Origin: a virus
Reading direction: 5' to 3' (one strand)
DNA length: 64,000 nucleotides
Virus record (IMG/VR): IMGVR_UViG_3300012000_000001
Coordinates: 49,553 to 113,552 of that record
The translations under genes were made by a program, and so were the position numbers. This document shows positions 32,701 through 57,033 of this stretch, one piece after another. Each line of letters opens with the position of its first letter. Positions within the stretch are counted from its first letter, which is position 1. The notes below the pieces were generated by a model. The model did not search any database and was not told the DNA's origin. It worked only from the letters and a program-made list of their open reading frames with translations.

Positions 32701-35700
32701 TTGCAAGAGGCTAAAACCACCAATTGTTCTGATACCTATGTTTTCCCATCTCTGGACATATCTAATTTATCTAGTTCTGATTATATTGTCATTGATCAAA
32801 AAACAACCGGGCTGACACCCACATTGAGTGTCGTATCCAATAGTAACGGCACATACGGCACAATTAGCCTAACTAACAATATAGCATCATATAATGCATG
32901 GGGTGAGCAGTTAAAGTCTAGGGATGCTCAGGGCGCAGAGGTACCCCTAACTAAATCTAAAATATATGTTCCAACCAGTGTAGAAGAAAATTATGTATTC
33001 TTGGACCCAATCAATAAACAATATGCTAAGATATTAATTGATTCTCCAGGATTAAGTCTCTATTTATCTAGTGAGGAAAATGCTAAAGATCCTAATAGGA
33101 CAGTAATCTCTAACGTTGCTGCTGAAGACCTCATAATATATTTAAAGACCCGTCAACAATATGATTATGAGTGGATAAGATACATGCTTAGTTATATTGT
33201 GCCAATGAGCCAAAGCAATGGTGTGCTTGGTGGAGATATTATGTATGGTACGATTGCAGCAGCTAGTAATACAACAGCGAATAATGTGGAATTAGCACCA
33301 AAAGCAGCACACCCATTTTTTGCTGCTATTCCCATCAAATCTAATATCTTTGTTTATGGTCCATGGACAAATTATCCTCATATTACCGGAACAGGCATTT
33401 TTCCAGAGGCTACGACAATTGATCAAAGTACAACTTTGCCGGTAACATGCACACCAAGCACTTTTACAACAACGGCTGAGATGGCAGAAAAAGCCGTCAA
33501 TAATATGATAACCGCTACAGAAATTGAGGTACAAGAAGATTTTGTACCTTGGAACTATGGTGGAATATATAATTTAGACATAGCTGCATTTAAAGAAATA
33601 GAAACCAAAGTCAATTATCAAACAATTATAGAAACAGCACAGGTTGAGATGCCTGGGTTGCCATTATTCAATTTGGGCGGAAATTTTGTATATGGAAATA
33701 TAGGCTTGGGTTATGATGCTGTAACCACTAGAGATATTAATTATGAGTCGTCTTCTTATGACCCTAATCCATTAGTAGATCTTACATATGCTGGTGGAAG
33801 TTTGGTATTTTCTCCTAATTCTATGAATACCAATACTTTTAATTATCAAATTATAGATGTAAAACAGGTAGCCGCTTTTGTTGCTGGCCCAATCATTACA
33901 AGTATTCAAACTTCAATTGGCCAACAGGGTATTAGTACCACATATACTTTTAGAACATATACTAGAAAAATTGGACTTTTTAATAAAGAAGAAAATGATC
34001 GAATGAAACGATTGGCTAAAATCAATATGCAGAGAAACAAACAGATAGCCAATTTGCATAACCAAATGCAGAATATTCAACAGCAACAGCAAAAATTTAT
34101 TACAGATGAAAGATTGAATAAAGCCGAGTTTGGAAGTCAAGACTTATCATCTAAATTATATGGCTGGAGTCCTAGTATGGTTATTATTGGCCAAGCTAGA
34201 CCATATATTGAAGAGCCATTGAGGACACCTAAATATGCTGAAGACTTCACATTAAATAGTAATCCCGGTGGACTTAATACCCAACCCGGATCTGCAACAC
34301 AATGGAGAGTGCCGTCTGGTAGTGACGTTGGAGATTCATCGGTAGAAAAAAATGGATTATTAACCAATAGCAGCAATGCTAGGACTTTCTTAAAAAGCAC
34401 AGGACGCATAACATCAACCGTACAACTTTATGAAAGAAAAGAAGTCAATGGTCAATTAGACAAAGATTATGGGATGCAATCAGCAATGAGTCTAGACGGA
34501 CTATTGTCTCCTATTTCTTTTTATCCTACATACAAAAACGCAACCTTCTCTTATTCTTTACATGACACAGCACGGTGTCCGTTTTGCAAGGGAACTAAAA
34601 TTCGCAAAATGGAAACAATAGAGTATTTAGACAGTGGTCAAAAAAACAAAACAACTATCGACGTAGCCTGTGATAAATGTACTTATCTTAATAAGAAGCT
34701 TAATGCTACCTTAAATACAGACAATAATGATGTTCCTATTAATCTAATTACATTAAACCCCATTGTCGTGCCTAAGGGTGAATTTAAAAATAGTAATAGT
34801 CAAAATTATAGCGGGAATCATCCAGATAAATTGCACGGTGATTTGTCGAATATAGGAGGATACACTGGCCAAACCAGATATTTTAGAGACAGACTCAGAC
34901 ACTGTATTGAAATTGTCGCCAGAGGGTCTGTTCCACCATCTAAGGCTGGCTATGCTCTAGAAACTAGTCGTAATGTCAATAAGGCTAGTACCAATCTAAC
35001 ATCTAACAAAAATAATTTAGACTATTATCATCAAGACATTATGCTTAGTCATATGAGATCTAAATATGGTGATAGTGTGAACAATGGTGTTGTTCATGAG
35101 AATAATCAGAGGTTTATCGGTTTAAGAGGTCCATTAGTATTACATTCTTGGGGATATGACCAAGATGGTTCTCCAGTGCCCAATGCTGCGGATGAACCTT
35201 ATGCTTTTGACTCTTATGGAAGACCCATGAGATTCAAAATTAAAATTACTCGAAAAACTAATACTAAAAAATATAAATCATTAAATATAGGAGAATCTTT
35301 TGCTCTACAAAACGACTCCAACGCCCCCATTTATGCAAAAACATTTAATAATGAATATCTTCCAAGTGGAGTAAATGACAATACTGACGTATATCCTGTT
35401 GATATTGAAAACGACCTTAAAACAAATGGTGGTTATGATCCTAATCAGGGATACACTGGAGATATTATTGGCAAAACCCAAAAATGGAATGGATCAAGAT
35501 GGACTGAAAAAGTTGCTACCAATGATTTTTATTTGAATTGGGCAGAAAGGCCCGATTTATGGAAGGTTGGTCCTATTGATTTATTTTGGGATGACGAAAG
35601 AAAAGTATGGAGTGGAGGAGATGGTGGGGCCGAATTAATGCCTCCATATATTGTTACTAATAGTAATGATATTAGTACTTTAGAAGAGTTTTTACGCAAA

Positions 35701-36159
35701 AGAAAAAAGAAAAAAGCATCATATCAAAACATATATGCTACATTAGAAGAAGATTTAATTAAACAACCAGATTTTGATGAAACTTATGCTACAAGAGCTT
35801 TTATAGATGATTTAGAATATTCAAAAGATCCTTTGCTGGCCGGTTATAGACGTTTAATATATGTTAAAGATAAGTGCGGATATTCTGCTCCAAAAGGAAC
35901 CAAGCTATTATGTAGATACAATAGAGTCACCGGCTTTTATGAACCAATCAGTAAACCGGCGATTATGGCCAAAGGATCTATCGCTAGCAGCAATAAAGCT
36001 ACTATAGAACTACACTATGTTCAAGGGAGAAGATCTGGTACAGTACCTTCTGTTATGATGGATTATACTAACCCGATGGGATTTACAACAAATACAGGAA
36101 TGATAGGAATGTTTACATTTATCAACGGAACGTGGACTTTAATTTCAATTAAATCATAA
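29767..36159 (+). CDS. Giant structural protein (2,130 residues), possible baseplate hub
   Basis: This starts 2 bases after the previous stop. The N-terminal part (about 30-210) includes SQITVNLIEDEA and YFRMGDFMFGGFVQSWTRN, which resembles the beta-barrel opening of hub-type tail proteins. A large mixed region without recognisable domains follows. Around residues 1410-1455 there is a Gln/Asn-rich coiled coil (MQRNKQIANLHNQMQNIQQQ). Near 1605-1645 a Cys4 zinc-ribbon-type element appears (CPFC, then CDKC about 30 residues on), unusual in a virion protein. The last 400 residues contain WDDERKVWSGG and RKRKKKKASYQ segments. Its order (after fibres, before another giant) and coupling suit a baseplate or tail-tip scaffold. 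The hub assignment is inference; the gene itself is certain. Confidence 0.55.
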   Translation: MPTQSCNTEPKQIAQTLFLGASVSSYNTSAGWGGQPSQITVNLIEDEAASKCLPEGAQTYNQFANSSFADNHYSTCTGVGCYIDKYTGQQATNNTPVDNRIIPGKVYYFLDSTTGLLKSRYWSKPDPGFFGNSTKIDGGGVDQTTGTTTFRYDIIDTPVYFRMGDFMFGGFVQSWTRNLNSGGKQYSVIINGPSSILNSCYVIIDKFAGSVFSKASSSTIYGSPKNYLGVDTNITYDNTHLKKGILPNVFNVYGFLESFGTNGFGGSGKNDNGVSINYILDALSVLTSLSPSSSKKLWTTGTELPRTAFSPFGRIISKCMVKDKADSDLYSPITSAFSSFGVIPPQPTIAGIGAPNTEGGDRCQFVLDLNDLIYTDRTRTTKRLPDDIRLTGPVMSVMELINTVAEKTGQDIFIEMVPTVYNSTITHVIKVKTISRLQQPRPNIIENTIKNMECNGYYISSNSFGKEKNETPARAMIIGGQQQRLFQVKSYRLAYSQSSFIYNPKTGNFINYRVYNQPNSTPNSLPFFSQAAQYGHGKIRPVNFCTTRNKLLTDHLNSNAGFTYHDIVNDEDRATGTTASFAVADSVWADASETGSGISSTHGNYKTAIKLTAQAPIAANDRWIPLYMDAICPFFGFVNDENATVSIGTDNDSNTDARQIRPVWLDSWTGQINVVINVNELPTLNVKLNKVSLGSSFTLPYTYTRSIAQNTKVLDKTGQITSLPDVEYFYITESEIRAALAGFDNFLVYSLSKTYKPDLIEMVRRAYFLQTKQKLVDRGVSATEAETIAHKETDWYWKLLGGNIGGDELYPVPISPDKTDGSQYIQEKALQDLKLLHKFVAEVGKHYGKKYMVAAWGLQSYKDESLFGAAFSTAQGYGYIFQGDGKLTYNYMPTNEGAWEEYGNIIDDSIVVGSPEWYAITDEQGRIKPLLGFNNNYNFDHVRYAKCQAAKNAKFNDPNDEWNQANANPYFSFNTWLTLQEAKTTNCSDTYVFPSLDISNLSSSDYIVIDQKTTGLTPTLSVVSNSNGTYGTISLTNNIASYNAWGEQLKSRDAQGAEVPLTKSKIYVPTSVEENYVFLDPINKQYAKILIDSPGLSLYLSSEENAKDPNRTVISNVAAEDLIIYLKTRQQYDYEWIRYMLSYIVPMSQSNGVLGGDIMYGTIAAASNTTANNVELAPKAAHPFFAAIPIKSNIFVYGPWTNYPHITGTGIFPEATTIDQSTTLPVTCTPSTFTTTAEMAEKAVNNMITATEIEVQEDFVPWNYGGIYNLDIAAFKEIETKVNYQTIIETAQVEMPGLPLFNLGGNFVYGNIGLGYDAVTTRDINYESSSYDPNPLVDLTYAGGSLVFSPNSMNTNTFNYQIIDVKQVAAFVAGPIITSIQTSIGQQGISTTYTFRTYTRKIGLFNKEENDRMKRLAKINMQRNKQIANLHNQMQNIQQQQQKFITDERLNKAEFGSQDLSSKLYGWSPSMVIIGQARPYIEEPLRTPKYAEDFTLNSNPGGLNTQPGSATQWRVPSGSDVGDSSVEKNGLLTNSSNARTFLKSTGRITSTVQLYERKEVNGQLDKDYGMQSAMSLDGLLSPISFYPTYKNATFSYSLHDTARCPFCKGTKIRKMETIEYLDSGQKNKTTIDVACDKCTYLNKKLNATLNTDNNDVPINLITLNPIVVPKGEFKNSNSQNYSGNHPDKLHGDLSNIGGYTGQTRYFRDRLRHCIEIVARGSVPPSKAGYALETSRNVNKASTNLTSNKNNLDYYHQDIMLSHMRSKYGDSVNNGVVHENNQRFIGLRGPLVLHSWGYDQDGSPVPNAADEPYAFDSYGRPMRFKIKITRKTNTKKYKSLNIGESFALQNDSNAPIYAKTFNNEYLPSGVNDNTDVYPVDIENDLKTNGGYDPNQGYTGDIIGKTQKWNGSRWTEKVATNDFYLNWAERPDLWKVGPIDLFWDDERKVWSGGDGGAELMPPYIVTNSNDISTLEEFLRKRKKKKASYQNIYATLEEDLIKQPDFDETYATRAFIDDLEYSKDPLLAGYRRLIYVKDKCGYSAPKGTKLLCRYNRVTGFYEPISKPAIMAKGSIASSNKATIELHYVQGRRSGTVPSVMMDYTNPMGFTTNTGMIGMFTFINGTWTLISIKS

Positions 36160-36162
36160 TAA

Positions 36163-39100
36163 ATGCTATCTTCAAGACTTATAGACAAAACTAATAAATG
36201 TAATATTGTATATAGATCATTTGTAGATGATTTATATCCATATAAGATATCTACTGACGGCTCATCTATTTTATATAGTGATAATTCTAGCCAAACTATA
36301 TCTTATAACAAATTAGATACCATAGGAGCACTAGCTGTCCAGTCTTATTCAGATATTAATAATGATGCATTAGCCGATTGTTGGCTGCCGGTTTTTGTTA
36401 CAGACGATGCGCATATAGAGAATAAGTTATTGTCTGATGATGGTAGTTATGCCAACGGCAACTCTGCGTTAATTAGCGGTCGCATAGGCATGGAAAATTT
36501 TCTATCATTTACTCCGAGTTTTAGAAGTTTCTCCAACGCCGGACAGATGTCTATTGACTGGATTTTAAATCGACATAACATTCCATATGCAGTATATTAT
36601 GGTATAATGTGTTGGGTTAGACGCAATAGCACATCTAATCCTATGATTATAGGCGGAGCCGCCTCTAAATTAGAGAGCTTTCCGCCCGGCACTAGACTAA
36701 AGCACTCCACCAAACCCAATGATGTATTGATTAAAATTGATAATAATACATTATATTTAGTTAACAGTCAAAGGTACACTGTTTCCACAGCCGTATTACA
36801 TCCTGATGAAAATATGTTTATTATTCAAGCATCGACGCTAACAGACTCTTATACTTTAGCGCCTGTTGTTACTAAAGAAACCTGGACCCCATCATCCACA
36901 ACAACGAATACAGAAAACGTAGATGGTTTCACCATCGCCCAATTAAATAATAACGTTAGACTATGGGTGCCAGACGGGGATTGTATATTCTATTATGCTT
37001 CTGAAGCTGAAAAGAGGGTGGCTGAAATAAAGGGCATACCTTCGAATGGTTTTGTCTCCCCGTGCCTAACTCGATCATATACTGCCATATATCGTATCTT
37101 GACACTTGATCAAACTCGTAGTTTTGCTAAAAAGAATTTACGAATCGCCAGATGCTATAGAAAGCTAGCACATGCTTTAAGTACTAGTCCTTTTATTACA
37201 GATTTTGCTATTAGGTCATTAGACTCAGCAGCGGTTAAGACTATTGTTGACACGTATATAAATAATAGTGCTACATCAACAAGCATAACTACTGAAACCA
37301 ATTTATTAAAGACAGCATTAAAAGACATTAGTCTATTTTTACAAAAAACCATTACTGTCGGTAGTGGCACAGCTAATACCGGTTTATATTTAGATACTAA
37401 ACCATCGCCATATAGTCTTAACAATAATTTAATTACTAATAAAAACCAGCTATTCACAAAACTGATTACAAAATATGGAGCTAATCTGGTTCTGTCCAGC
37501 GGACCTGTGACCTTAAGTGTTAATAGTAGTTTATTCTCAGATAATGCTGGTGCCGTTATTACACAAGCTATGGATTATTACTGTCCTAAGAACACTAAAG
37601 AAAGTTTAATCTATAATAATCAAAAAATTACTTATGAAGGCACCTCAATAGTTAGTAATATATCTCCAACAAATTCTAGTCTTTCTATTAGAAATACATT
37701 TTCTAATGAAGAAACCGTATCTATACCATTATACGATATAGCCAAACCAGACATAGATGGTGCGCAAACGTTATTCCAACCCAAGCTGTTATATACTGGA
37801 TATATTGATAGACAATATATGTCTAATGGTACATTATTTAATGTGGCAAATAATATTGGTTCATATTATAAATACGCAATGAAAACATCGTCTCGTATTG
37901 ATACAAATGGTACTCTGATACCCAGCCCAGATTTAATAAAGGGAGAAGAGAATGGGCCAGAATTAGACGCCATGGATTTATTGCTCAATGTTAGAGATAA
38001 AACATCATTACTATTACACGATAGATATATTGAAAACCAGATGTCTTTTTTGTGGGAAAAATTGTCTGGCCCAGATTGTGAATTTATAGAGAATAATGGA
38101 GGCTTCACCAATACTGCTAAACCGTCTAATACTACAGCTAATAGTAGATATATAAGATTAAAAATAAAAACTTCGGGCAAATATGTTGTTCAATGTACTA
38201 TTAATTCACCATATGGTACATTTAAAAAACAAAAAACAATATATGTTTATGATGGTGCCGATCTGATGGAAAAATATAATGACAACGGTTTTAGCATCAC
38301 GATATCATACGTACCCAATGTTATGCTCAACAAATGGTATGATGAAAATACACAGTCTTGGGCAGATGTGCCCGTTTTACTTCCTAATGAGCCCGAATTT
38401 ACTCCTATTTATCTTAATCGAGACAATCTAAGGGTACGTTGCTCTAAATTTAATAGGGTGGCTATTAGTCAAATTGGAGCGGTTTTTGTTCCGATTAGTA
38501 CCGGCTTTACTGTTAGAGAAATGGTTGGCGTGATAGGCTCTCTTCCAGAAACCGAAGTAGTTAAATTAGACGAATTATACAAATTTAAAACCAATAAAGA
38601 GTATACGGCTTCATCAGTATCTAATTTGGCTATAACATATAACTTAGAATCTAATACTATAGCCAAGTTATCAGCTATTTATGTAGAAAAAATTCGAAGT
38701 AACCTACCCAACTGTGAGCAATGTTTTAGTTTATACGAGCCTAAACTAAGAGCAAGAAAAAGTAGTGTTTTTACTGGAAGCAGTAGAACTAATACTGTTA
38801 GATATGATCGTATCAATAAATTTCCAGAAGGCTTTAAATTATATAAATACAAAACCGCTAATGGTCCCGGCTTAATTTCGGCCGAAGAAGATGGCACGGT
38901 TGGCTTTAGCTATCCTAAAATCTCCACAACCTCGGCCCCCGCTGTTAAAACCTATGGAGGATATACTAATAGTGTTATTAATAACTTGGGCATACAAAAT
39001 AATATTAATTCTTTTTATGGTACTAATATACCCGGTTTAGAACGACCACGAGCAAATGCATCAGATGCCGGATCATTAGCGGCGACAACACCAGCCACGC

Positions 39101-42100
39101 TGCCTCCTGTTACGGGTTTTCCATTAGATATAGCAAACGATGATGATCCTAGCAAACACAAATTATGTTATCAAAGGCAAGTTCCCTATGTTGGTGGCGG
39201 ACCTATTACTTTCACCAAGGGTGTGTTACATCCAAATAGCGGATGGATACCACATACATCTAGTGATTATGCTATTCATGCTAATCGTAGCAGTGTCTTG
39301 AAATTTAATCCAGGAGCTAGAAGTACATTTAGTTTTATTGGACCAAAAGTATCCAATATATCAGCACTATCTGCTAATATAGCAAGCGGAGTAGTTGAGC
39401 CGAATACATTGTCCAGTTCAATATCTTTAAAGATGGCAAATGGAGTACAGTGGGATCCTCCTTGTTATTGTGAAAATCCTGGTGAAAATGCTAGTTTAGA
39501 ACTTTACAACACTAATCAAAAACATAAAGAATATATTGATACTACAACACACAGATCGTCACATGGATATAGGTATCTACATGGTGGAGAACCCAAGCCT
39601 ATTGAACGAACGGCACTAACTAATGTTGCGACTTATAATGATGAATTCGGGGCTGATCAAGATAATGATACATTCTCATATTCATTTGCTGTCACCGGGC
39701 CTGCGTCTCTACCTAGCGAAGTTATGGGCGCTGACGGAAAAATCAATTTACGAATACCGACAGTACAATCATTTGGTATCAAAGATATTGAAGTCAAATT
39801 AAATTTTTTAAATTATGTCAATACTAAGAATTTAGTCATATGGTTAGAAGTACAACCAGACGGTACTGAAACGAAAACTAGAGGACCAGACAGAAACGGT
39901 AAATACCCTTCACCAATTAAAGCTTCCAAAAAGTTTTTAGACCAGACTATCCCACCATCCGTAGTATCTGGCATTAATTATCAAACGGGCATAGATTCAC
40001 AGCTACTATATAGCAATATACCAAATAATAAAATTGCTAATTATTTAGATTGTTTATTAAATGCTGAGAATGATTCCCCCGGCGGCCCATTAAGGCTCTT
40101 ATTGTTAAACCAAGAGCATATAGAAAATAATGGATACAACTTTAGTATTAAATTTTCTGATAATGCCTCTAAATATAATGTTTTATATGATCAAAACATT
40201 ATCAACGGAACACAGGTAACTAATAGTACAACATACCCAGCCCACACCTTATCCGATTTAGAAAAACAACAAAATATAGTACGCAGCATGGGGGAAGTGA
40301 GACCATCTTTGTCGGCAGTATCATACTCAGATAGACAGGCTTGTCAATTTAGCAAAATTCTAAAAACCAATAGACTTAACCCGACTGCTGCAAGTTTCAG
40401 TAAATTTTATACAAACACACTATTTAAAAATGCAGCACCAGAGAGTGGTCCCTGTCCTCCAGAAAGATCTCCTAAGCAGAAAGACGGAGACTTGAATGGG
40501 ACTACAGTATTTACACTCAAAATTATGGTATTGGACGAAGCAGAGGACATGGCTCCGAATGATACATTGATCAGTAATCAATATCTAACGGGTCTTTCTT
40601 CAGCATCCAAAACACAAACTTCTAATGATATATTTAACTCATTATGTAATTGGGAGTTAATTCTACATGTAGGAGATGTTCCAAAATTCGTACCACACAC
40701 CAACCCCAATCTTGCTTCATATGGTAATTGTGATGCTTTGTCTTTACTAGACTATACTAAAAATTTAAAATATCCTGGATATAGTTTTATCGCCGATTTA
40801 ACAAACTATCAACATTTATTGCCTTTAGCGAATATAGATGCTCCAAATATGGGCATCGCAGATACCTCTTTATGCTTAACCAATAAAAATGATCCAACAG
40901 GTGGAGGTTTTGTTGTTAAACCAGTAGATTTTCCTAGCTATGCCATAGTACAGATATTAGCTTCTTTAGTTTCTCCAACTACTGGCACTCTAATTGGAAC
41001 AGCAACCGCTCCGGGTGTTGGATATAGTCAGGGATTTAATACTATTATTAGCTGGTTTGCAGAAAGCCGTTTTTTAAGTTCACTAGAAGATTCTGGTAGA
41101 CAGATCTATTCACAATCGTATACCAAATACCCATTCGGCTCTCCTGAAAAAATATTATTAAATGTGCGTAAGAATGATTCGTTATGGTATTCTTTAGAAG
41201 CATTTATTATGAAATATCATAACACACCAATTTTGCAATTAAAGAAACATAATTATCTAAAAGTGCAAAGAGGAATAAGTAAATATGCTACAGAATTTAA
41301 ATTTAGTTTGGTACAGGATTATCAGGATTTGATTAATACAAAAGATGTGCCGGAACTAATTTTTGATTGTTCTGGAGATTTGCCATTTAATCAGACCAGT
41401 ATAACATATCCAGCAACATATGGAAATCTATTAGTAAATTATGGTGATTTGATCAATATCTCTGTTACGGGCGTTGCCAATACTCCTGATGGTACTTGTT
41501 CGGAAAATAATGGACTCTATGTTGCATTGGATACTGGTTGGAAAAAAGTAGATAATGACAATTTAGCAAATTTATCTCAAACAATATCTATGTTAGAACA
41601 TAATGCTGCTTTATCCTATAATAATAGCTTTTTTACGAATGAATTGAAAGCCGCAATTACTGATTCAAAAACGATTATCTGCAAAAGTAGAATACCTTAT
41701 GATATCTTTTTAGTGGGAGATAGTATAGAATGTTATCCCAATACAGAGCGTCTATCGTCTAGCAGTGCCGAAATTATTACTGTAAAAATTTTAAAGAAGG
41801 CATTAATTACCAAAAATAATAGTTTATATTCTGTTTTTGTTATAGATACAGCAATTACCACCCAAGATACTCTGTCTCCAACACCAGACACAAATACATT
41901 ATTAGTTTATTCAAATAATACTACTAGGGATCAGGGCATTAACAAAGAATATAGTGCGTGGGGATTAGATTCTAATGGCTACTTTAAAGAAACTCCCCCA
42001 TACGCAGGGTTTTCTGCTCATAGCGTCGGCTCTTATGGCAATATATCGCCATTTGTTAACAAAAATTTATTAGATAAAAATTTCAGATTTAATCAAATAC

Positions 42101-44103
42101 AACCCACACACGAAGTTTTGAATAACCATCAAAATGATAAAATTAAATACAATAAAATTAATATCTATAATTTTAATAATGGCGCCCTATTACCTATCAC
42201 TGGTTTTACTAACGATATGTCCTGTGGATTTGCTTACAGCGAAGTAGATTTATACGAACCTAGCATTTTTCAAACCAATACACAAAACGTAGCCGTTTCT
42301 ACCGAGAACATGCGTCAGGCTAATGCTGATTTTGGCGATCTAGAACGTAGCTTGATAGAACAGTTAAAACAATCAACTGGCTATAATGAAAAAAATTATT
42401 CCTTTATGTATGTTAGAACATCTACAGCCACATCTCAAAGCTCCCCAATAGCCATTCCTCTATCTGGTTGCTTAACAATAGAGAATAATTATATAGAACA
42501 TATTCCTATTAAATTAGTAGATTTAGACGGTATTGTCTCAAGACTAGACACTATAGATAGTATTAAAACACAACCCAGCTTAGAAAACATTGTTGGAGAT
42601 CCTAGCCAAACATCATCTGTACTAGCGTCAAACAGTATTAAATATGTACAAAAGCATTTAGACAGACTCACCAAAGACGATCCTGCTGAATGTCATCGCC
42701 CCAATGCTACTGTCTCTAATTGTCCAAAACTCAGAACACAAACTAAATTAAATAAGCTGTATAATGAGCGTACTGATTTATTAAAACTGTTAGAGCAACA
42801 GGCCGTAGCCTTTGCAACTGTTATATATGCTGATGATTCTAATAATAGACAAACTGTTACTGGTGAAATTATCGCAGAGGGTGTGGATTTTATTACGGTT
42901 TCTAATACCAGCGGAGTGTCTAAAATTTCTAAATCAAGTATTATAAACACAGATACTGAGTATGGTCTAACTAAAACATATACTAGAAAAGACTTGTTGC
43001 CCAGTAACCATATTCAAAAAATACCCACCGATGTTTTACCTAAAATAGAACCTCTTATCACCACTAATACCGATGGCAGTATTGATATTGTATATTCTCC
43101 AATAAACTTAAATCATTATTGGATAAATATTGACCCCAAACAATCATGTGTGCTGGACTTTACTAGCAATCCTAAGATTTTAGTATCTACAGAATATCAA
43201 TGCATCAGAGCTAATGAGTCTTTATTAAACTCTGTTGTTAGTCTGGTAGCAGATAATAATGTGTGTCCGGATTTTGCCACCAAAGAAGGAGTTCCACAAT
43301 TCCCCTCCGAAGCGATAGGAGACGAGGGTTTTTCGTCGAATAATAAAAAATATAAATATACAATACCTGTTAATATTGTTGACACACAAAAAAATACATA
43401 CACTTCACAGTATCCTGCTATAACGGGTTGGAAAACTCTAACTAAAGAACGTTATTTTAATATAAATGCTGATAATAGTTTGGGCTTAGAAGGGGTCGGT
43501 TCGGAGATTACTGTAGCCTCTACAGAAACATATTTAGTGCCCGAAATCTCCACAGCCCCATCTTATAATGATGGATCTGCTGACGCTCAATCAGTTCCCG
43601 GTATCGGCGTATGTCAAACAAACCTAGGAAGTCCAGGCGGATACGGATTATTAGGTCCGGATTATCTTGGTACCAGAGTTGGACAAAGTACAAGGGTACA
43701 GAATATATTTAATTTAGACGATATTAATAGTATTGAAGTACAAATTAAACGTATACCAAGACTTTTACGTGGTTGTGACTTATTAGGCACTGTATACAGG
43801 TATGGTAATCGTAGTTTATTTAGACAACAGTCTTCGGCAAATCCAAGAGTACCATTTGAAGTAGACGGTATTGGTATTAATGGGCCGTTAAATAATAGTT
43901 TATACTGTTGGATATGTTTACAACAAAGTGCTCAAGACAATAAACTCAGATATGCATCAATACCACCATTTCTACAGCATCAAAACGAGATGATCTTCAG
44001 AAGTTTCTTTGGTAGTGTAGACCGTATAGAGAACAGAACAGATTTAATGATTTCGTATTATCCATGGGAGCTTATTCCGTATGAGTACTCAAGATTCGAA
44101 TAA
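36163..44103 (+). CDS. Giant structural protein (2,646 residues), unknown
   Basis: The ATG at 36163 is 3 bases after the preceding stop. I recognise no full-length family. The N-terminal third has beta-rich sequence (YGIMCWVRR, FTIAQLNNNVRLWVPDGD). A PKD/Ig-like domain lies near residues 625-700 (FLWEKLSGPDCEFIENN, then SGKYVVQCTINSPYGTFKK). The rest is Asn/Ser/Thr/Tyr-rich and lacks transmembrane segments, signal peptide, protease or lysozyme motifs that I can see. Size and context mark it as a virion protein of the tail tip or a giant fibre. Its end overlaps the start of the next gene by 23 bases. Confidence 0.5.
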   Translation: MLSSRLIDKTNKCNIVYRSFVDDLYPYKISTDGSSILYSDNSSQTISYNKLDTIGALAVQSYSDINNDALADCWLPVFVTDDAHIENKLLSDDGSYANGNSALISGRIGMENFLSFTPSFRSFSNAGQMSIDWILNRHNIPYAVYYGIMCWVRRNSTSNPMIIGGAASKLESFPPGTRLKHSTKPNDVLIKIDNNTLYLVNSQRYTVSTAVLHPDENMFIIQASTLTDSYTLAPVVTKETWTPSSTTTNTENVDGFTIAQLNNNVRLWVPDGDCIFYYASEAEKRVAEIKGIPSNGFVSPCLTRSYTAIYRILTLDQTRSFAKKNLRIARCYRKLAHALSTSPFITDFAIRSLDSAAVKTIVDTYINNSATSTSITTETNLLKTALKDISLFLQKTITVGSGTANTGLYLDTKPSPYSLNNNLITNKNQLFTKLITKYGANLVLSSGPVTLSVNSSLFSDNAGAVITQAMDYYCPKNTKESLIYNNQKITYEGTSIVSNISPTNSSLSIRNTFSNEETVSIPLYDIAKPDIDGAQTLFQPKLLYTGYIDRQYMSNGTLFNVANNIGSYYKYAMKTSSRIDTNGTLIPSPDLIKGEENGPELDAMDLLLNVRDKTSLLLHDRYIENQMSFLWEKLSGPDCEFIENNGGFTNTAKPSNTTANSRYIRLKIKTSGKYVVQCTINSPYGTFKKQKTIYVYDGADLMEKYNDNGFSITISYVPNVMLNKWYDENTQSWADVPVLLPNEPEFTPIYLNRDNLRVRCSKFNRVAISQIGAVFVPISTGFTVREMVGVIGSLPETEVVKLDELYKFKTNKEYTASSVSNLAITYNLESNTIAKLSAIYVEKIRSNLPNCEQCFSLYEPKLRARKSSVFTGSSRTNTVRYDRINKFPEGFKLYKYKTANGPGLISAEEDGTVGFSYPKISTTSAPAVKTYGGYTNSVINNLGIQNNINSFYGTNIPGLERPRANASDAGSLAATTPATLPPVTGFPLDIANDDDPSKHKLCYQRQVPYVGGGPITFTKGVLHPNSGWIPHTSSDYAIHANRSSVLKFNPGARSTFSFIGPKVSNISALSANIASGVVEPNTLSSSISLKMANGVQWDPPCYCENPGENASLELYNTNQKHKEYIDTTTHRSSHGYRYLHGGEPKPIERTALTNVATYNDEFGADQDNDTFSYSFAVTGPASLPSEVMGADGKINLRIPTVQSFGIKDIEVKLNFLNYVNTKNLVIWLEVQPDGTETKTRGPDRNGKYPSPIKASKKFLDQTIPPSVVSGINYQTGIDSQLLYSNIPNNKIANYLDCLLNAENDSPGGPLRLLLLNQEHIENNGYNFSIKFSDNASKYNVLYDQNIINGTQVTNSTTYPAHTLSDLEKQQNIVRSMGEVRPSLSAVSYSDRQACQFSKILKTNRLNPTAASFSKFYTNTLFKNAAPESGPCPPERSPKQKDGDLNGTTVFTLKIMVLDEAEDMAPNDTLISNQYLTGLSSASKTQTSNDIFNSLCNWELILHVGDVPKFVPHTNPNLASYGNCDALSLLDYTKNLKYPGYSFIADLTNYQHLLPLANIDAPNMGIADTSLCLTNKNDPTGGGFVVKPVDFPSYAIVQILASLVSPTTGTLIGTATAPGVGYSQGFNTIISWFAESRFLSSLEDSGRQIYSQSYTKYPFGSPEKILLNVRKNDSLWYSLEAFIMKYHNTPILQLKKHNYLKVQRGISKYATEFKFSLVQDYQDLINTKDVPELIFDCSGDLPFNQTSITYPATYGNLLVNYGDLINISVTGVANTPDGTCSENNGLYVALDTGWKKVDNDNLANLSQTISMLEHNAALSYNNSFFTNELKAAITDSKTIICKSRIPYDIFLVGDSIECYPNTERLSSSSAEIITVKILKKALITKNNSLYSVFVIDTAITTQDTLSPTPDTNTLLVYSNNTTRDQGINKEYSAWGLDSNGYFKETPPYAGFSAHSVGSYGNISPFVNKNLLDKNFRFNQIQPTHEVLNNHQNDKIKYNKINIYNFNNGALLPITGFTNDMSCGFAYSEVDLYEPSIFQTNTQNVAVSTENMRQANADFGDLERSLIEQLKQSTGYNEKNYSFMYVRTSTATSQSSPIAIPLSGCLTIENNYIEHIPIKLVDLDGIVSRLDTIDSIKTQPSLENIVGDPSQTSSVLASNSIKYVQKHLDRLTKDDPAECHRPNATVSNCPKLRTQTKLNKLYNERTDLLKLLEQQAVAFATVIYADDSNNRQTVTGEIIAEGVDFITVSNTSGVSKISKSSIINTDTEYGLTKTYTRKDLLPSNHIQKIPTDVLPKIEPLITTNTDGSIDIVYSPINLNHYWINIDPKQSCVLDFTSNPKILVSTEYQCIRANESLLNSVVSLVADNNVCPDFATKEGVPQFPSEAIGDEGFSSNNKKYKYTIPVNIVDTQKNTYTSQYPAITGWKTLTKERYFNINADNSLGLEGVGSEITVASTETYLVPEISTAPSYNDGSADAQSVPGIGVCQTNLGSPGGYGLLGPDYLGTRVGQSTRVQNIFNLDDINSIEVQIKRIPRLLRGCDLLGTVYRYGNRSLFRQQSSANPRVPFEVDGIGINGPLNNSLYCWICLQQSAQDNKLRYASIPPFLQHQNEMIFRSFFGSVDRIENRTDLMISYYPWELIPYEYSRFE

Positions 44104-52640: not shown

Positions 52641-52668
52641 ATTATAGTGAAGAGCCCCTTTCTGTCAA
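52641..52668 (-). promoter_or_regulatory. Near-consensus sigma-70 promoter for ssb
   Basis: On the minus strand TTGACA (52668-52663) and TATAAT (52646-52641) are separated by 16 bases. Both hexamers match the consensus exactly. The -35 box overlaps the TGA stop of the upstream polymerase gene (TGA at 52667-52665). The -10 box is 40 bases from the ssb ATG. This implies host RNA polymerase transcribes ssb and the genes beyond it independently of the replication operon. Confidence 0.85.
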
Positions 52669-54290
52669 GCCACGGGCTCAAAACACTTTTCTACGATCAG
52701 ACCATCCTTGCTTTTGCTTTTATTCCCAGAAAATACTAGAATATTTCCTAAAAATAAATATGAACGATATTTGGAGAATTGTTCTGGAAATAATACTACC
52801 GAATCTAATGTTCCATATTGATCTTCTATAGTAACAAATGCCATCTCCAACCCTGGATTTTTTCCACTCTTAGTTTTTGTCACATTAATATTACTAATTT
52901 CTCCAACCAATACAATATTTTCTTTTAATAAAGATGTTTTAAATGTTTTACAATTGCAATTGGCCATAGTAATATCATAAACATCTAATTTGGAACACGT
53001 AATACCCACACCCAAAAGCTCATTTTCTTGATCGGATAACCATTCAATTTTATCGATTAAAGAATATGGTGGATGCTCTAGTGATTTGATATAATTAGAT
53101 ACTGTTTCTTTACGGCCACGAATTAGTTTGGTCTCAACAAACAGCCTTTGCATAATTTCTTTTACACTGCTACCAATCATTGTTTTAGCATATACATTAA
53201 ATACTGTTTGTTCTTTCTTTGTTAGGCCGGAACAAATATCGTATTCAAATAACATTTCTGATCTATTCTTTTTATAGTAATCAAATGCACCACAGCTAAT
53301 CAATGCCTTGGCGGCGACAGAATTAATATTCATTAGTATGGTGCCTATCATTTCTGGCCAAGATACTTCTGATATATTAACGTTTTTTGTTAGTTGTAAA
53401 ATTTTAGTATATACAGATTTGCCAACTCCCTTTATATCAGTCAGGCCAAAGTATATTTTTTTATCTTTTAATACAAAAAACTCATTGGTATTTCTAAAAT
53501 CAGGAATATGAACTTCTATGTCCATTTCCATCGCATTTCTAACTAATTCTTTAATTTCTTGTTGTGGATCGATTTTGTCTTTAGCAAACCTTAAATATGA
53601 TGCGAAGAAAACTTTTGGGAAATGTGCCTTGGCATATGCCGACAAATATGCATTCATTGCATAACTGATAGAATGACTAGCATTAAATAAATATCTTTGA
53701 GATTTTTCAATCCATTCAAAGATTTGTGCGGCCTCTGCTTCTGATAGTTTTCCTGTTTTTTTAGCTCCTTCTATAAATTGTTTGCGTACCTTTGCCATCT
53801 TGTCAGCCTGTTTTTTTCCAATCGCTTTTCTTAAGTCATCCGCTTCTTTAAGATTAAAACCAGCTAACTCTTTAGCGATAGACATAGCTTGTTCTTGGTA
53901 AATCATTTCAGAATAAGTGTCTTTTAAAATTGGTTCTAATGCCGGATGAAAATAATCAATAGACTCTAAACCATTTTTCTTATCTATATAATGACTACTT
54001 ACGCTCTTACCGTCACGATGAGCCTCTAGACACCCCGGCCTTAAAATACTAATAAGCCCAGATAGCTGTTCAATATTTTGAGGCTTCAATTTTCTGGCCA
54101 TGGTTTGACCAAGCCTTGATTCTAATTGAAAGCACCCCTTGGTATTTCCAGCAGAAATAAGCTCCCATGTTTTATAACAATCAAGACTAATATCAGATAA
54201 CTTAGGAGAAAATTTAATTTTAGGAAATTCTCCACTTTTGTCCAACACTTCAAACTTACAACCGCAATCAAATACAAAAAAGTCTGACAT
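52665..54290 (-). CDS. dnaE: DNA polymerase III alpha subunit, C-terminal half
   Basis: The product has 541 residues and is the second half of a split PolIII alpha. Residues 1-45 (MSDFFVFDCGCKFEVLDK...) form an extra N-terminus with a CGC element. From about 46 it follows the DnaE family: SAGNTKGCFQLESRLG, KLKPQNIEQLSGLISILRPG, YQEQAMSIAKELAGF, DDLRKAIGKKQADKMAKVRK, LFNASHSISYAMNAYLSAYA, a helix-hairpin-helix (LTDIKGVGKSVYTKIL, about 283-300) and an OB-fold (NIVLVGEISNINVTKT to VVLFPEQF, about 458-530). It ends after the OB-fold without the tau-binding C-terminal domain of E. coli. The catalytic Asp residues are in the other half (55165-57033), so both proteins must associate to make an active polymerase. 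Confidence 0.9.
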   Translation of the reverse strand: MSDFFVFDCGCKFEVLDKSGEFPKIKFSPKLSDISLDCYKTWELISAGNTKGCFQLESRLGQTMARKLKPQNIEQLSGLISILRPGCLEAHRDGKSVSSHYIDKKNGLESIDYFHPALEPILKDTYSEMIYQEQAMSIAKELAGFNLKEADDLRKAIGKKQADKMAKVRKQFIEGAKKTGKLSEAEAAQIFEWIEKSQRYLFNASHSISYAMNAYLSAYAKAHFPKVFFASYLRFAKDKIDPQQEIKELVRNAMEMDIEVHIPDFRNTNEFFVLKDKKIYFGLTDIKGVGKSVYTKILQLTKNVNISEVSWPEMIGTILMNINSVAAKALISCGAFDYYKKNRSEMLFEYDICSGLTKKEQTVFNVYAKTMIGSSVKEIMQRLFVETKLIRGRKETVSNYIKSLEHPPYSLIDKIEWLSDQENELLGVGITCSKLDVYDITMANCNCKTFKTSLLKENIVLVGEISNINVTKTKSGKNPGLEMAFVTIEDQYGTLDSVVLFPEQFSKYRSYLFLGNILVFSGNKSKSKDGLIVEKCFEPVA

Positions 54291-54291
54291 A

Positions 54292-54990
54292 TTATCTAAT
54301 ACTAAAAGCTGATTTAAACTTTACCTTTGTCGCTATATTTCTATGTAATCTTAAAAATCTAATAAGAATATCCGCCGTATCTCTAACATCTTTTAGAGCA
54401 TCATGAGCGCCTTCTTTATCTATGCCTAAATAGTCTCTCAGGTTATCGAGTGTATAATTTTTGAGTTCATTATTTCCTTCAAACCAGTAAAATACCAAAT
54501 TCATTAAATCTATAACATCTCTTGGATAAAATATATCCGACCTACCCTCTTTGTTAAGATTATCATATTTTTTACTTAGTCTCTCAATAATCCGAAGATC
54601 GAATCTGTTTATATTATAACCAGCTGCAATCGGTGCCGTAAAGCATGATTTTTTGCCGGTTGAGCGAGAATGATACATATTCAGGTATGATATGAATAAC
54701 TTCCAGCCATTTTCTTGTTTTTGATAAGATTTCCAGTCACAAAGAATTTCTTCTTTGGGCTTTGATCTGACCTTGGCATGAAAATCTAGCACATCAGAAT
54801 CTGCATATGCATATTCAATATTATTCTCTAGCGCTTCTGGTTTAACAGTTATATTAAATTCAGAGTCTGGAATAATCTCTAATCGATACGGATCAATCAT
54901 TAGAGCAGCAATCTGAACGGGGCTACAAAGATCCGGATTAGCCCCGTCCGTTTCTAAGTCAAATACACAAATTTTTTGTAGATTAGCCAT
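54292..54990 (-). CDS. dnaQ: DnaQ-like DEDDh 3'-5' exonuclease, proofreading subunit
   Basis: The product has 232 residues. Exo I: D11-L-E13 in VFDLETDG. Exo II: D131 in GYNINRFDLRI. Exo III: H196 and D201 in GAHDALKDVRDTA, with H-x4-D spacing as in the E. coli epsilon subunit. A few extra residues between Exo I and II (NMYHSRSTGKKSCF) are phage-specific. It removes mismatched 3' ends during synthesis. The gene sits between the two halves of PolIII alpha and ends one base before the start of the C-terminal half, so the replicase and its editor are probably made together. Confidence 0.9.
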   Translation of the reverse strand: MANLQKICVFDLETDGANPDLCSPVQIAALMIDPYRLEIIPDSEFNITVKPEALENNIEYAYADSDVLDFHAKVRSKPKEEILCDWKSYQKQENGWKLFISYLNMYHSRSTGKKSCFTAPIAAGYNINRFDLRIIERLSKKYDNLNKEGRSDIFYPRDVIDLMNLVFYWFEGNNELKNYTLDNLRDYLGIDKEGAHDALKDVRDTADILIRFLRLHRNIATKVKFKSAFSIR

Positions 54991-55162
54991 TCACCACTAC
55001 TACTGTTGAACCTGGAAAAAATGCCTTTTGGTTAGTGTCTGATGCTACCTGACAATTAATTGACCTACAGCAACTAACTCTAACCTCTTCTGTTTTAACG
55101 TACTCAACACCGTTGACTGTAAACTGTGTGCCAACGGCAACCTCTTCAAATTTCTTTTCCAT
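54983..55162 (-). CDS. 59-residue conserved-looking phage protein inside the split polymerase locus
   Basis: The ATG at 55162 lies two bases after the stop of the N-terminal polymerase gene, and the stop overlaps the DnaQ start by 8 bases. The product, starting MEKKFEEVAVGTQFTVNGVE, is an all-beta, Gly/Val-rich protein with a VRVSCCRSINC segment and ends GSTVVVVNG. It resembles small phage proteins of the 'VGTxFxxNGxxYxK...SCCRSxN...F.P.T.V' type, function unknown. It could be a replisome accessory or a small regulatory protein. It is too short for most automated gene calls but fits the spacing perfectly. Confidence 0.65.
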   Translation of the reverse strand: MEKKFEEVAVGTQFTVNGVEYVKTEEVRVSCCRSINCQVASDTNQKAFFPGSTVVVVNG

Positions 55163-55164
55163 AA

Positions 55165-57033
55165 TTACTCTCCATATTGTAATATATCTGATATTGTCAT
55201 AATCTTATCCAACATTGCAACACCTAGAATATCAAATTTGATCAAACCAAGACCTTCTAAGTCCTGCATTTCCATACCGGCTATGGCTTGTTTATTTCTG
55301 GTGTCATATACCATAGGACATACAGAACTCAGATTTTCACTACTAATAACTACACCGGCAGCATGTTTTGATTGATTAGATTTAGTACCCTCTAATCGTA
55401 TTGCCTGCTCAAATCTTTTTGCCAACGGACCTTCGAGCACGTTGTCATTAGATATATAGCACCATTCCTTGAGCTTGTCAACATTATTTTCTAATGCCCA
55501 CTGAATAATAGAAGCTTCACCGGTATCTTCTTTCATTTCTTGAAGCTCGTCTGCAATTTTGGCTTCGTCTGGAATATTTTTTGTAATCCTATTCATTTCA
55601 TCAAACGAAATATTGCCATATACTCTTAAAACTTCTTTAAGAGCCCCTCTACCTTTCATAGTATTGAAAGTAATCATCTGAGAAACCTTATTTGCACCAT
55701 ACTTATTTTTAATATAGTCAATAATATATTCTCGTTTGGTGATAGGTACGTCAACATCTATATCTGGCATGGATATGTGATCGACTGTATTTCGCCCCTC
55801 ATTATAAAATCTTTCGAATAACAAATCATATTTGATAGGATTAATATCTGTTATACCTATTAGATATGATACCAGACAACCAGCAGCACTACCTCTTCCG
55901 GGACCGGGAAGCCAGCCATGGGATTTAACGTGATTCACAATATCCTGAACAATTAGAAAGTAGCTGGACAAACCCGCATTTTGTAAAACACTGAGTTCAA
56001 ATTTAATTCTGTTTAAATAAGTTTCGTGTTCAGTTTCGGGTATTTTATTAGATATTTTATCTCGCCAACCATTTCGGCATAGTTGTCTGAGGTATTCGTC
56101 TGGTTCTAAATTATTAGGACAATCAAATTTAGGCAAAGCCGGTTTGCTTAAAATGCTGTATTCTTCACACAAAGAATCAACATAGAGAGTATTCTCAATT
56201 TCTTCTTCTGTGTGTAGTGCAAACATTTCTTCTGGAGACAGAATATGATAGTTATCTGACTGAAAAAAACAACTTAGAGGAACTTCCTGATTGGCTAAAA
56301 GTTTTTTGTTAACGTCTACTAGTGTTGTTTTAAGATTATTACACAACAATATACGTTGATCTATAGCATCCTCTTTATTGCAATAGTGTGCGTCTGGAGT
56401 GCAGATTACTTTTGTATTGGTTTTCTGTCCAAGAGCACGAACAAAATCAGTAACCTCTTGCTGCATAGGGTTTAACACCCTATCCATTAGTTGTACCTCA
56501 AGGAAAAAATTTTCTGGACCAAAAATTTCTTTCATCTTGGCTACAAAATCTATGCCAGTCTTTTCAGCAGTGTTTGAGGATGTTTCAACCAAATCTGGCA
56601 ACAAAGACCCTAGGTGGCCACAAAATCCTATAATGTTTCCATCTAAGAAATTTGCTAATTTATCCATACTAATTCTAGGCTTATGATAAAAATTTTCTTC
56701 TCTATTAGTTTCAGAAACTATAGAAATAAGCCTACGCCAACCAGCCAAGTTTTTAGCCAATACTAAAAAATGACTTAAGCCATTATTTTCTTTAGACTTG
56801 ATAGTAGAATCATCATGAGAAATATATAGTTCACACCCCAAAATAGGTTTGATGTTTTGAGCCCTAAGTGCTTGAAAAAACTGTAAGGAACCAGATATGG
56901 TGCCATGATCAGTAAGGGCACAAGACTTTATGCCTACACTAGCACATCTTTGTGCTATTTGATGAGGCTTACTAATTCCATCCAATAAACTGTAGTGAGA
57001 ATGATTATGCAAAGAGGCGTATGTTTTTGTCAT
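55165..57033 (-). CDS. dnaE: DNA polymerase III alpha subunit, N-terminal half (PHP and catalytic Asp)
   Basis: The product has 622 residues. The PHP domain (1-280) has HNHSHYS (H9, H11), TDHG (D42-H43), a GCELYI segment and CTPDAHY (D214, H216), so its metal-binding residues look intact and it may have phosphoesterase activity. The palm has GPGRGSAAGCLVSYLIGIT (about 377-395), catalytic D424 and D426 in MPDIDVD, and the third catalytic D601 in LIKFDILG. The fingers start with SKHAAGVVI (about 556-564). The gene stops 21 residues after D601; the fingers, HhH and OB regions are in the gene at 52665-54290. No intein N-terminal sequence is visible at the end. Summed length, about 1,163 residues, is that of a normal DnaE. 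Confidence 0.92.
   Translation of the reverse strand: MTKTYASLHNHSHYSLLDGISKPHQIAQRCASVGIKSCALTDHGTISGSLQFFQALRAQNIKPILGCELYISHDDSTIKSKENNGLSHFLVLAKNLAGWRRLISIVSETNREENFYHKPRISMDKLANFLDGNIIGFCGHLGSLLPDLVETSSNTAEKTGIDFVAKMKEIFGPENFFLEVQLMDRVLNPMQQEVTDFVRALGQKTNTKVICTPDAHYCNKEDAIDQRILLCNNLKTTLVDVNKKLLANQEVPLSCFFQSDNYHILSPEEMFALHTEEEIENTLYVDSLCEEYSILSKPALPKFDCPNNLEPDEYLRQLCRNGWRDKISNKIPETEHETYLNRIKFELSVLQNAGLSSYFLIVQDIVNHVKSHGWLPGPGRGSAAGCLVSYLIGITDINPIKYDLLFERFYNEGRNTVDHISMPDIDVDVPITKREYIIDYIKNKYGANKVSQMITFNTMKGRGALKEVLRVYGNISFDEMNRITKNIPDEAKIADELQEMKEDTGEASIIQWALENNVDKLKEWCYISNDNVLEGPLAKRFEQAIRLEGTKSNQSKHAAGVVISSENLSSVCPMVYDTRNKQAIAGMEMQDLEGLGLIKFDILGVAMLDKIMTISDILQYGE

What the first reader, a model, noticed from the sequence alone, without database searches (positions are those of the whole stretch)
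52665..57033. DNA polymerase III alpha split immediately after its catalytic palm
The N-half carries PHP plus all three catalytic Asp (D424, D426, D601) and ends 21 residues after D601. The C-half starts before the GNTKGCFQLES region and holds fingers, HhH and OB-fold. A 59-residue gene and a DnaQ exonuclease occupy the gap. No intein fragments are visible at either end. The C-half has 45 extra N-terminal residues with a CGC element that may aid reassembly.
Basis: partly seen in the sequence, partly recalled or inferred. Interest (0 to 1): 0.65.

Follow-up and report, generated by a model that had tools for sequence, protein, structure and literature searches.

The report
Two-piece DNA polymerase in large phages
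A large clade of uncultured phages makes its main DNA-copying enzyme as two separate proteins that must snap together, and in a fifth of its members the start of the same gene is also broken by a stop signal that ribosomes probably have to jump.

Summary
The window, part of a 197-kb IMG/VR virus record, encodes DNA polymerase III alpha as two genes: N-half (622 aa: PHP, palm, thumb, all three catalytic Asp) and C-half (541 aa: fingers, HhH, OB fold), with a 59-aa gene and a DnaQ exonuclease between. It is not an artefact: all 170 related loci that reach both halves are broken at the same palm-fingers linker, none in the clade is fused, and both halves are under purifying selection. No intein or catalogued intron is present. 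No other replicative polymerase was found in ten large records of the clade. Best reading: two subunits, co-expressed and joined without a covalent bond. Splits are known (Iyer 2021 jumbo phages; T4-like gp43A/43B); the same linker broke independently in Rossellomorea phage phiT1. So this is a new variant of a known kind. The CGC element is clade-specific but dispensable. Beyond the finding, the N-half gene attracts homing endonucleases: one relative has a three-piece polymerase, and about a fifth carry at the PHP HxH codons a stop, a 5-9-nt gap and a strong hairpin, sometimes with an HNH endonuclease, resembling T4 gene 60 translational bypassing. That is untested but most novel.

The parts
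55165..57033 (-). DNA polymerase III alpha, N-half (622 aa): PHP domain, palm, thumb
   Evidence: dN/dS about 0.017 against L003
56491..57012 (-). PHP domain (residues 8-181 of the N-half); nine metal-ligand positions H9 H11 D18 H43 E68 H88 H140 D214 H216 all filled (the last two lie just beyond the Pfam match)
   Evidence: Pfam PF02811; ligand list from PMC3666897; conservation in 108 N-halves
55222..56097 (-). DNA_pol3_alpha palm/thumb region (residues 313-604)
   Evidence: Pfam PF07733
55756..55764 (-). codons D424 to D426, first two catalytic Asp
   Evidence: alignment with Taq, E. coli and Mtb alpha; D in 108 of 108
55231..55233 (-). codon D601, third catalytic Asp; the N-half ends 21 residues later
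54983..55162 (-). 59-aa conserved gene, small beta-barrel, invariant Cys31-Cys32; present in 165 of 170 gaps of the clade
   Evidence: model pLDDT 94; only weak EF-P/eIF5A-like fold matches, E 0.1
54292..54990 (-). DnaQ-family DEDDh 3'-5' exonuclease (D11, E13, D131, H196, D201 invariant)
   Evidence: Pfam PF00929, phrog_192; conservation, motifs in 83 homologues
52665..54290 (-). DNA polymerase III alpha, C-half (541 aa): fingers, HhH, OB fold
   Evidence: model pLDDT 86, best PDB matches all Pol III alpha, E 5e-22
54177..54290 (-). clade-specific N-terminal element of the C-half with C9-G-C11 and C38
53751..54203 (-). fingers domain (residues 30-180 of the C-half)
   Evidence: Pfam PF17657
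53256..53519 (-). helix-hairpin-helix region (residues 258-345)
   Evidence: Pfam PF14579
52698..52913 (-). OB fold (residues 460-531)
   Evidence: Pfam PF01336, below the curated cut-off; fold match

Best explanation
The phage's replicative C-family DNA polymerase is a true two-subunit enzyme. The N-half brings the PHP nuclease site and the whole catalytic palm; the C-half brings fingers, HhH and OB fold. They are made from one operon, in the order N-half, 59-aa protein, DnaQ, C-half, with ends that abut or overlap, so they are made together, and they dock without a covalent bond across the palm-fingers linker, the natural hinge, to form a polymerase. DnaQ most likely serves as its proofreader, alongside a PHP site that keeps all nine metal ligands. 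Shown: the split, its conservation, selection on both halves, intact catalytic residues, and the absence of any other polymerase found. Inferred: assembly, activity, and the DnaQ contact. The split is derived from a one-piece polymerase. The likeliest origin is insertion of a homing endonuclease into conserved codons, since relatives still carry such genes in or beside this polymerase, but no endonuclease remains in this window.
For: All 80 nearest relatives keep the break and the gap genes as far as their contigs reach. In the clade 170 loci are split and none fused; gap census: N-59aa-DnaQ-C 163, with an extra HNH gene 2, N-DnaQ-C 3, N-DnaQ-EndoVII-C 1, neither 1. Selection: dN/dS about 0.017 (N) and 0.016 (C) against L003, though dS is saturated. 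Catalytic Asp 108 of 108. Ten large records (175-244 kb): exactly one fingers domain each, no PolA, no PolB; control genomes ring. Tree: the split clade lies among fused enzymes and starred branches force at least 3 changes. C-half model matches Pol III alpha. Precedent: split gp43A/43B co-purify and are active, split NrdA is functional (PMC2988022). Nuclease genes in or near the gene: L170 LAGLIDADG inside the palm, L281 and L107 HNH in the gap, L171 EndoVII-like in the gap.
Against: No complex could be modelled here and nothing was tested at the bench. No beta clamp was found in the record by PF00712, and no conserved clamp motif was seen by eye in the C-half, so processivity is unexplained. 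The virus records are linear and may be incomplete. Most gaps hold no homing endonuclease today, so the origin by insertion is inferred from a few relatives. Support for placing L314 with the clade is only 88.
Confidence: 0.85

Rival explanations
1. Sequencing or assembly error, or a dying pseudogene: a fused gene broken in this record only.
For: Interrupted genes in metagenomic contigs are often artefacts (general knowledge; no tool result supports it here).
Against: The same break with the same intervening genes occurs in 170 loci from many metagenomes; both halves are under purifying selection.
Confidence: 0.01
2. The halves are joined covalently, by a split intein or by RNA trans-splicing.
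For: Cyanobacterial DnaE is split by an intein (PMC3919608).
Against: No intein domain in either protein. The N-half stops 17-30 residues after the last Asp in all relatives; the C-half begins with its own Met and element. No Rfam intron at the window locus at E<1, apart from one chance snoRNA match.
Confidence: 0.03
3. The halves do not form a polymerase: the N-half acts as a nuclease, the C-half as a DNA-binding protein, and the host enzyme replicates the phage.
For: Assembly is not shown, and no clamp was found.
Against: All three catalytic Asp and the conserved fingers motifs are invariant; no other polymerase was found in ten large records; the genes sit with primase, DnaB helicase and SSB.
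Confidence: 0.07
4. The two-gene form is ancestral (as Iyer et al. propose for a minimal phage Pol III) rather than a later fission.
For: Iyer et al. suggest that split minimal versions model the ancestral enzyme (PMC7824862).
Against: The split clade lies among fused phage and bacterial enzymes, a second split lineage (phiT1, L249) lies elsewhere, and the domain make-up is a full PHP-containing DnaE. The root of the tree is not fixed.
Confidence: 0.05
5. The break arose by capture of DnaQ and the 59-aa gene themselves (or by plain rearrangement), not through a homing endonuclease. (A rival on origin only; compatible with the two-subunit reading.)
For: DnaQ is in 169 of 170 gaps and the 59-aa gene in 165; an endonuclease is in only 3.
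Against: The same gene is invaded by nucleases at two other conserved sites (L170 palm; PHP start in L129 and L331), and the early-branching member L171 has an EndoVII-like gene in the gap.
Confidence: 0.4

Closest known systems
Split minimal Pol III alpha of group 2.2 jumbo phages (Iyer et al. 2021, PMC7824862)
   Same: Phage C-family polymerase encoded as two proteins, catalytic part and template-binding part, presumed to reconstitute an enzyme.
   Different: Those lack PHP and the other domains, their two genes lie far apart, and a family B polymerase is also present. Here PHP and OB are kept, the genes share an operon with DnaQ, and no PolB or PolA was found.
Rossellomorea phage phiT1 gp20/gp18 (PV767480; annotated as two 'DNA polymerase III subunit alpha' genes)
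   Same: Split at the same palm-fingers linker, with a small gene in between.
   Different: Separate origin on the tree; unrelated 49-aa gene, no DnaQ in the gap, no CGC element.
T4-like gp43A/43B (Aeromonas phages 25, 44RR) and phage Aeh1 split NrdA (PMC2988022)
   Same: Phage enzymes in two pieces that work without splicing, linked to homing endonucleases.
   Different: Family B polymerase or ribonucleotide reductase; in the window no endonuclease is left at the break.
Cyanobacterial split DnaE (split intein)
   Same: Pol III alpha encoded by two genes.
   Different: Joined by protein splicing; no intein here.
T4 gene 60 / mobA translational bypass (compared with the relatives' N-half gene only)
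   Same: Stop directly after the take-off codon, upstream stem-loop, homing endonuclease next door in some.
   Different: Polymerase gene; gap of 5-9 nt instead of 50; landing codon is Ser or Thr and not always identical; not shown experimentally.

Membership tests
C-family DNA polymerase (DnaE, Pol III alpha) | PHP, palm/thumb, fingers, HhH and OB domains | tested here: met
   spread over two proteins; the OB match is below Pfam's cut-off but the fold search finds it
C-family DNA polymerase (DnaE, Pol III alpha) | three catalytic Asp of the palm | tested here: met
   D424, D426, D601
C-family DNA polymerase (DnaE, Pol III alpha) | one polypeptide | tested here: not met
   two genes 874 nt apart in the window, split in 170 loci
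C-family DNA polymerase (DnaE, Pol III alpha) | clamp-binding motif after the HhH region | tested here: inconclusive
   no conserved QxxLF-like motif seen in the A3 consensus; no clamp in the record by PF00712
C-family DNA polymerase (DnaE, Pol III alpha) | DNA synthesis by the assembled enzyme | not testable with these tools
   needs protein biochemistry
Split-intein DnaE | intein halves at the junction | tested here: not met
   no Hint or intein domain by Pfam; junction tails
Group 2.2 jumbo-phage split minimal Pol III | no PHP domain | tested here: not met
   PHP present, E 5.6e-34
Group 2.2 jumbo-phage split minimal Pol III | accompanied by a family B polymerase | tested here: not met
   no PF00136 match in ten records
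Group 2.2 jumbo-phage split minimal Pol III | the two genes far apart | tested here: not met
   gap 0.8-4.1 kb in all loci
Homing-endonuclease 'genes in pieces' | endonuclease gene at the break | tested here: not met
   absent in the window; present in L281, L107 and L171 gaps and, at another site, in L170
T4 gene 60-type translational bypass (relatives' N-half gene) | stop codon directly after the take-off codon, and a stem-loop | tested here: met
   TCY-TAR and hairpin of -16.7 to -20.3 kcal/mol against a mean of -3.2 in 87 continuous relatives
T4 gene 60-type translational bypass (relatives' N-half gene) | matching take-off and landing codons | tested here: inconclusive
   TCY to TCN in most, TCC to ACT in some
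T4 gene 60-type translational bypass (relatives' N-half gene) | a single protein made across the gap | not testable with these tools
   needs a reporter and mass spectrometry

The most novel reading that the evidence does not exclude
In about a fifth of this clade the first codons of the polymerase N-half are a mobile cassette: an HNH homing endonuclease (intact, remnant or lost) plus a hairpin-stop-gap element inserted in the PHP HxH codons, which ribosomes bypass to rebuild ...LHVHS-HYSLLDG. With the palm-fingers fission and a three-piece polymerase in one relative, a single replicase gene would then show three ways of surviving homing-endonuclease attack, with translational bypassing (known in phages essentially from T4 gene 60) recurring as a conserved, mobile device in an essential polymerase.
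Probability: 0.6. Interest if true: 0.85.

Novelty: new variant of a known kind. Interest (0 to 1): 0.62.

Why it matters
A C-family replicase that works as two natural subunits would show that the palm-fingers hinge of DNA polymerase III can be cut, giving a ready tool for studying how this polymerase opens and closes and how DnaQ and PHP proofreading share work. The clade is common in large uncultured phages, so the arrangement is not a curiosity of one genome. Recurrent invasion of one polymerase gene by homing endonucleases makes the origin of split genes testable, and the hairpin-stop-gap element offers a second natural system, with dozens of variants, for the long-standing question of how ribosomes jump gaps.

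Tried and rejected
Sequencing artefact: rejected. Intein or RNA intron at the junction: none found; no Rfam intron at L170 either. A second polymerase doing the work: no PolA or PolB in ten records, one fingers domain each. Zinc site shared between the CGC element and another part: C9, C11, C38 are nearly constant, but no fourth ligand co-varies with them and L171, which lost them, is too divergent to judge. Function of the 59-aa protein from its fold: a confident small barrel, but only weak EF-P-like matches. Seeking phiT1-like loci with a single protein gave nothing; an alignment was needed. Host: DUF1501 and DUF1559-like genes inside two gaps hint at planctomycete hosts, not established. 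Larrie's intein-like tail: Pfam finds no intein domain. For the PHP gap element, a single frameshift was rejected because the gap length varies over all three frames. Modelling of the N-half/C-half/DnaQ complex was not possible with the tools, which fold single chains only.
Full report
What is there. The window is bases 49553-113552 of a 197,026-base IMG/VR virus record. On the minus strand it carries a replication block: DnaB-type helicase, Toprim primase, dNMP kinase, PD-(D/E)XK nuclease, Pol III alpha N-half, a 59-aa gene, DnaQ, Pol III alpha C-half and SSB. The four genes of the finding follow each other tightly: 2 nt between the N-half stop and the 59-aa start, an 8-nt overlap into DnaQ, 1 nt between DnaQ and the C-half. 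This favours joint translation (inference).

Where the cut lies. The N-half aligns to Taq, E. coli and M. tuberculosis alpha through the third catalytic Asp (D601) and stops 21 residues later. The C-half aligns to E. coli alpha from its residue 31, E. coli 586. The break is therefore in the palm-fingers linker. All conserved residues are kept and about 25-30 residues are gained, not 45.

It is real and conserved. A scan with the N-half gave 219 relatives, the best 80 at 68-100% identity. In every one the N-half ends at the same place and is followed by the 59-aa gene, DnaQ and the C-half as far as the contig goes. With more distant relatives, 170 loci of the clade have both halves and all are split. 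Residues after the last Asp number 17-30, most often 21. dN/dS is about 0.017 for the N-half and 0.016 for the C-half against L003, with dS saturated, so only the direction of selection is safe. Some loci are different stretches of the same contig, so 170 is a count of loci, not of independent viruses; the non-redundant N-half set has 108 sequences.

It is probably the phage's replicase. In the own record and nine other large records (175-244 kb) there is exactly one fingers domain and no family A or B polymerase, while control genomes ring. No beta clamp was found in the own record. The nine metal positions of PHP listed by Barros et al. (PMC3666897) are all filled, with His at position 7, and are kept across the clade; DnaQ keeps its DEDDh residues. 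That paper reports that loss of PHP ligands goes with a separate exonuclease, so having both is less usual, though Clostridia with several active proofreaders are described (PMC12926913).

Evolution. In a tree of 71 sequences the split clade (L314, L171, L309 and 17 core rows) lies among fused phage and bacterial enzymes; phiT1 and L249 form a second, separate split lineage at the same linker; starred branches force at least three changes (quick method, root not fixed). Tenacibaculum phage Larrie is cut elsewhere, just before the PDxD motif. Iyer et al. 2021 describe a minimal split Pol III without PHP in group 2.2 jumbo phages (PMC7824862). So the kind is known, and the present arrangement is a variant.

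The CGC element. C9 and C11 occur in 62 of 64 aligned C-halves and C38 in 63. None of 92 fused linkers has CxC. All three Cys are missing in L171 and L066; L306 keeps only C38. This fits a small metal-binding or folding unit that belongs to the split clade, but a fourth ligand is missing and a role in reassembly is unproven. The C-half model (pLDDT 86) puts a short hairpin there.

Gap contents. 163 of 170 loci have 59-aa gene plus DnaQ; two add an HNH gene (L107, L281); L309, L315 and L324 have DnaQ plus a uracil-DNA glycosylase; L171 has DnaQ plus an EndoVII-like nuclease; L294 and L312 add ThyX and genes with DUF1501 or DUF1559 domains. In L170, on a contig binned with an alphaproteobacterium, a LAGLIDADG gene also cuts the N-half just before PDIDID, so that polymerase is in three pieces. 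The picture is of a gene repeatedly entered by homing endonucleases at conserved codons, as known for T4-like gp43 and Aeh1 nrdA, whose pieces work together (PMC2988022).

A further break in relatives. About a fifth of distinct N-half genes (20 of 110 tree rows) do not read through their start. They encode M(D/G)(V/M)xxxYxPLHVHS, a stop (TAR), and after 5-9 nt, in any of the three frames, S/T-HYSLLDG or a close variant. Other relatives and the window read ..LHxHSHYSLLDG.. without a break. The remaining seven PHP ligands stay conserved in the broken genes, so the HxH is presumably still supplied. The stretch from ATG to the codon before the last Ser folds into one hairpin of -16.7 to -20.3 kcal/mol in 15 of 15 variants, against a mean of -3.2 and a minimum of -11.0 in 87 continuous relatives. 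The outer nine pairs are 98% paired, 22-48% when slid, with one pair changed on both sides. Searching 2.9 million viral contigs for the conserved 19-mer gave 30 stretches, all but one at this gene. The element is scattered on the N-half tree (12 changes, at least 9 forced; L033 was mislabelled continuous there, which inflates the count slightly). Broken loci have 59-173 nt, or 857 or 1134 nt, from the upstream nuclease gene's stop to SLLDG, against 35-49 nt in most continuous ones. The long ones hold an intact HNH endonuclease, L169 and L313 its remnant, and L129 still shows what looks like the old start MKNYIPLHVHAH upstream of it. One continuous relative, L281, also has an HNH ORF abutting its start, so the association is not exclusive. 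T4 gene 60 has the same set: homing endonuclease, stop after the take-off codon, stem-loop, bypassed gap (PMC3014915, PMC5009743). I therefore predict translational bypassing, perhaps as a mobile cassette, at about 0.6; a separate 14-residue peptide, reinitiation or RNA processing remain open.

Verdict. The wider locus is more interesting than the split alone.

Noticed in passing
L030, L031, L032, L036, L041, L060, L064, L065, L107, L127, L129, L152, L169, L304, L313, L327-L354 except L342 (5' end of the N-half gene; not in the window): Stop codon plus 5-9-nt gap inside the PHP HxH motif, preceded by a strong conserved hairpin that includes the start codon; looks like T4 gene 60-type translational bypassing.
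   Followed up: yes
L129/L347, L331/L345 upstream of the N-half; remnants in L169, L313: HNH homing endonuclease directly upstream of the gap element; L129 keeps what looks like the old gene start before it.
   Followed up: partly
L170:3230-4081: LAGLIDADG endonuclease gene inserted just before the catalytic PDIDID codons, giving a three-piece polymerase; no Rfam intron there.
   Followed up: partly
L088 (Rossellomorea phage phiT1, PV767480) and L249: Independent split of Pol III alpha at the same palm-fingers linker, with a different small gene in between.
   Followed up: yes
L082:1899-5479 (Tenacibaculum phage Larrie): Pol III alpha split before PDxD; the first piece ends in an intein-like tail, but Pfam finds no intein.
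   Followed up: partly
L294:8722-11782 and L312:9178-11207: DUF1501, DUF1559/prepilin-like and ThyX genes lie between DnaQ and the C-half; they suggest planctomycete-type hosts.
   Followed up: no
window 54983-55162: The 59-aa gap protein has an invariant Cys-Cys pair and a confident small beta-barrel model, function unknown.
   Followed up: partly
window 55165-57033 and 54292-54990: Complete PHP metal site together with an intact DnaQ exonuclease: possibly two proofreading sites in one phage replicase.
   Followed up: partly
L268, L285, L290: Further cut forms: L268 has its C-terminal OB part as a separate ORF; L285 and L290 have the first about 100 PHP residues in a separate ORF.
   Followed up: no
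L095:10032-10382 and L094:19511-19596 (own record): The record carries a tmRNA gene (tag GETQLALAA) and a tRNA-Leu.
   Followed up: no
window 63-8855, 29767-36159, 36163-44103 (+): Three very long ORFs of 2930, 2130 and 2646 aa on the other strand, not examined.
   Followed up: no
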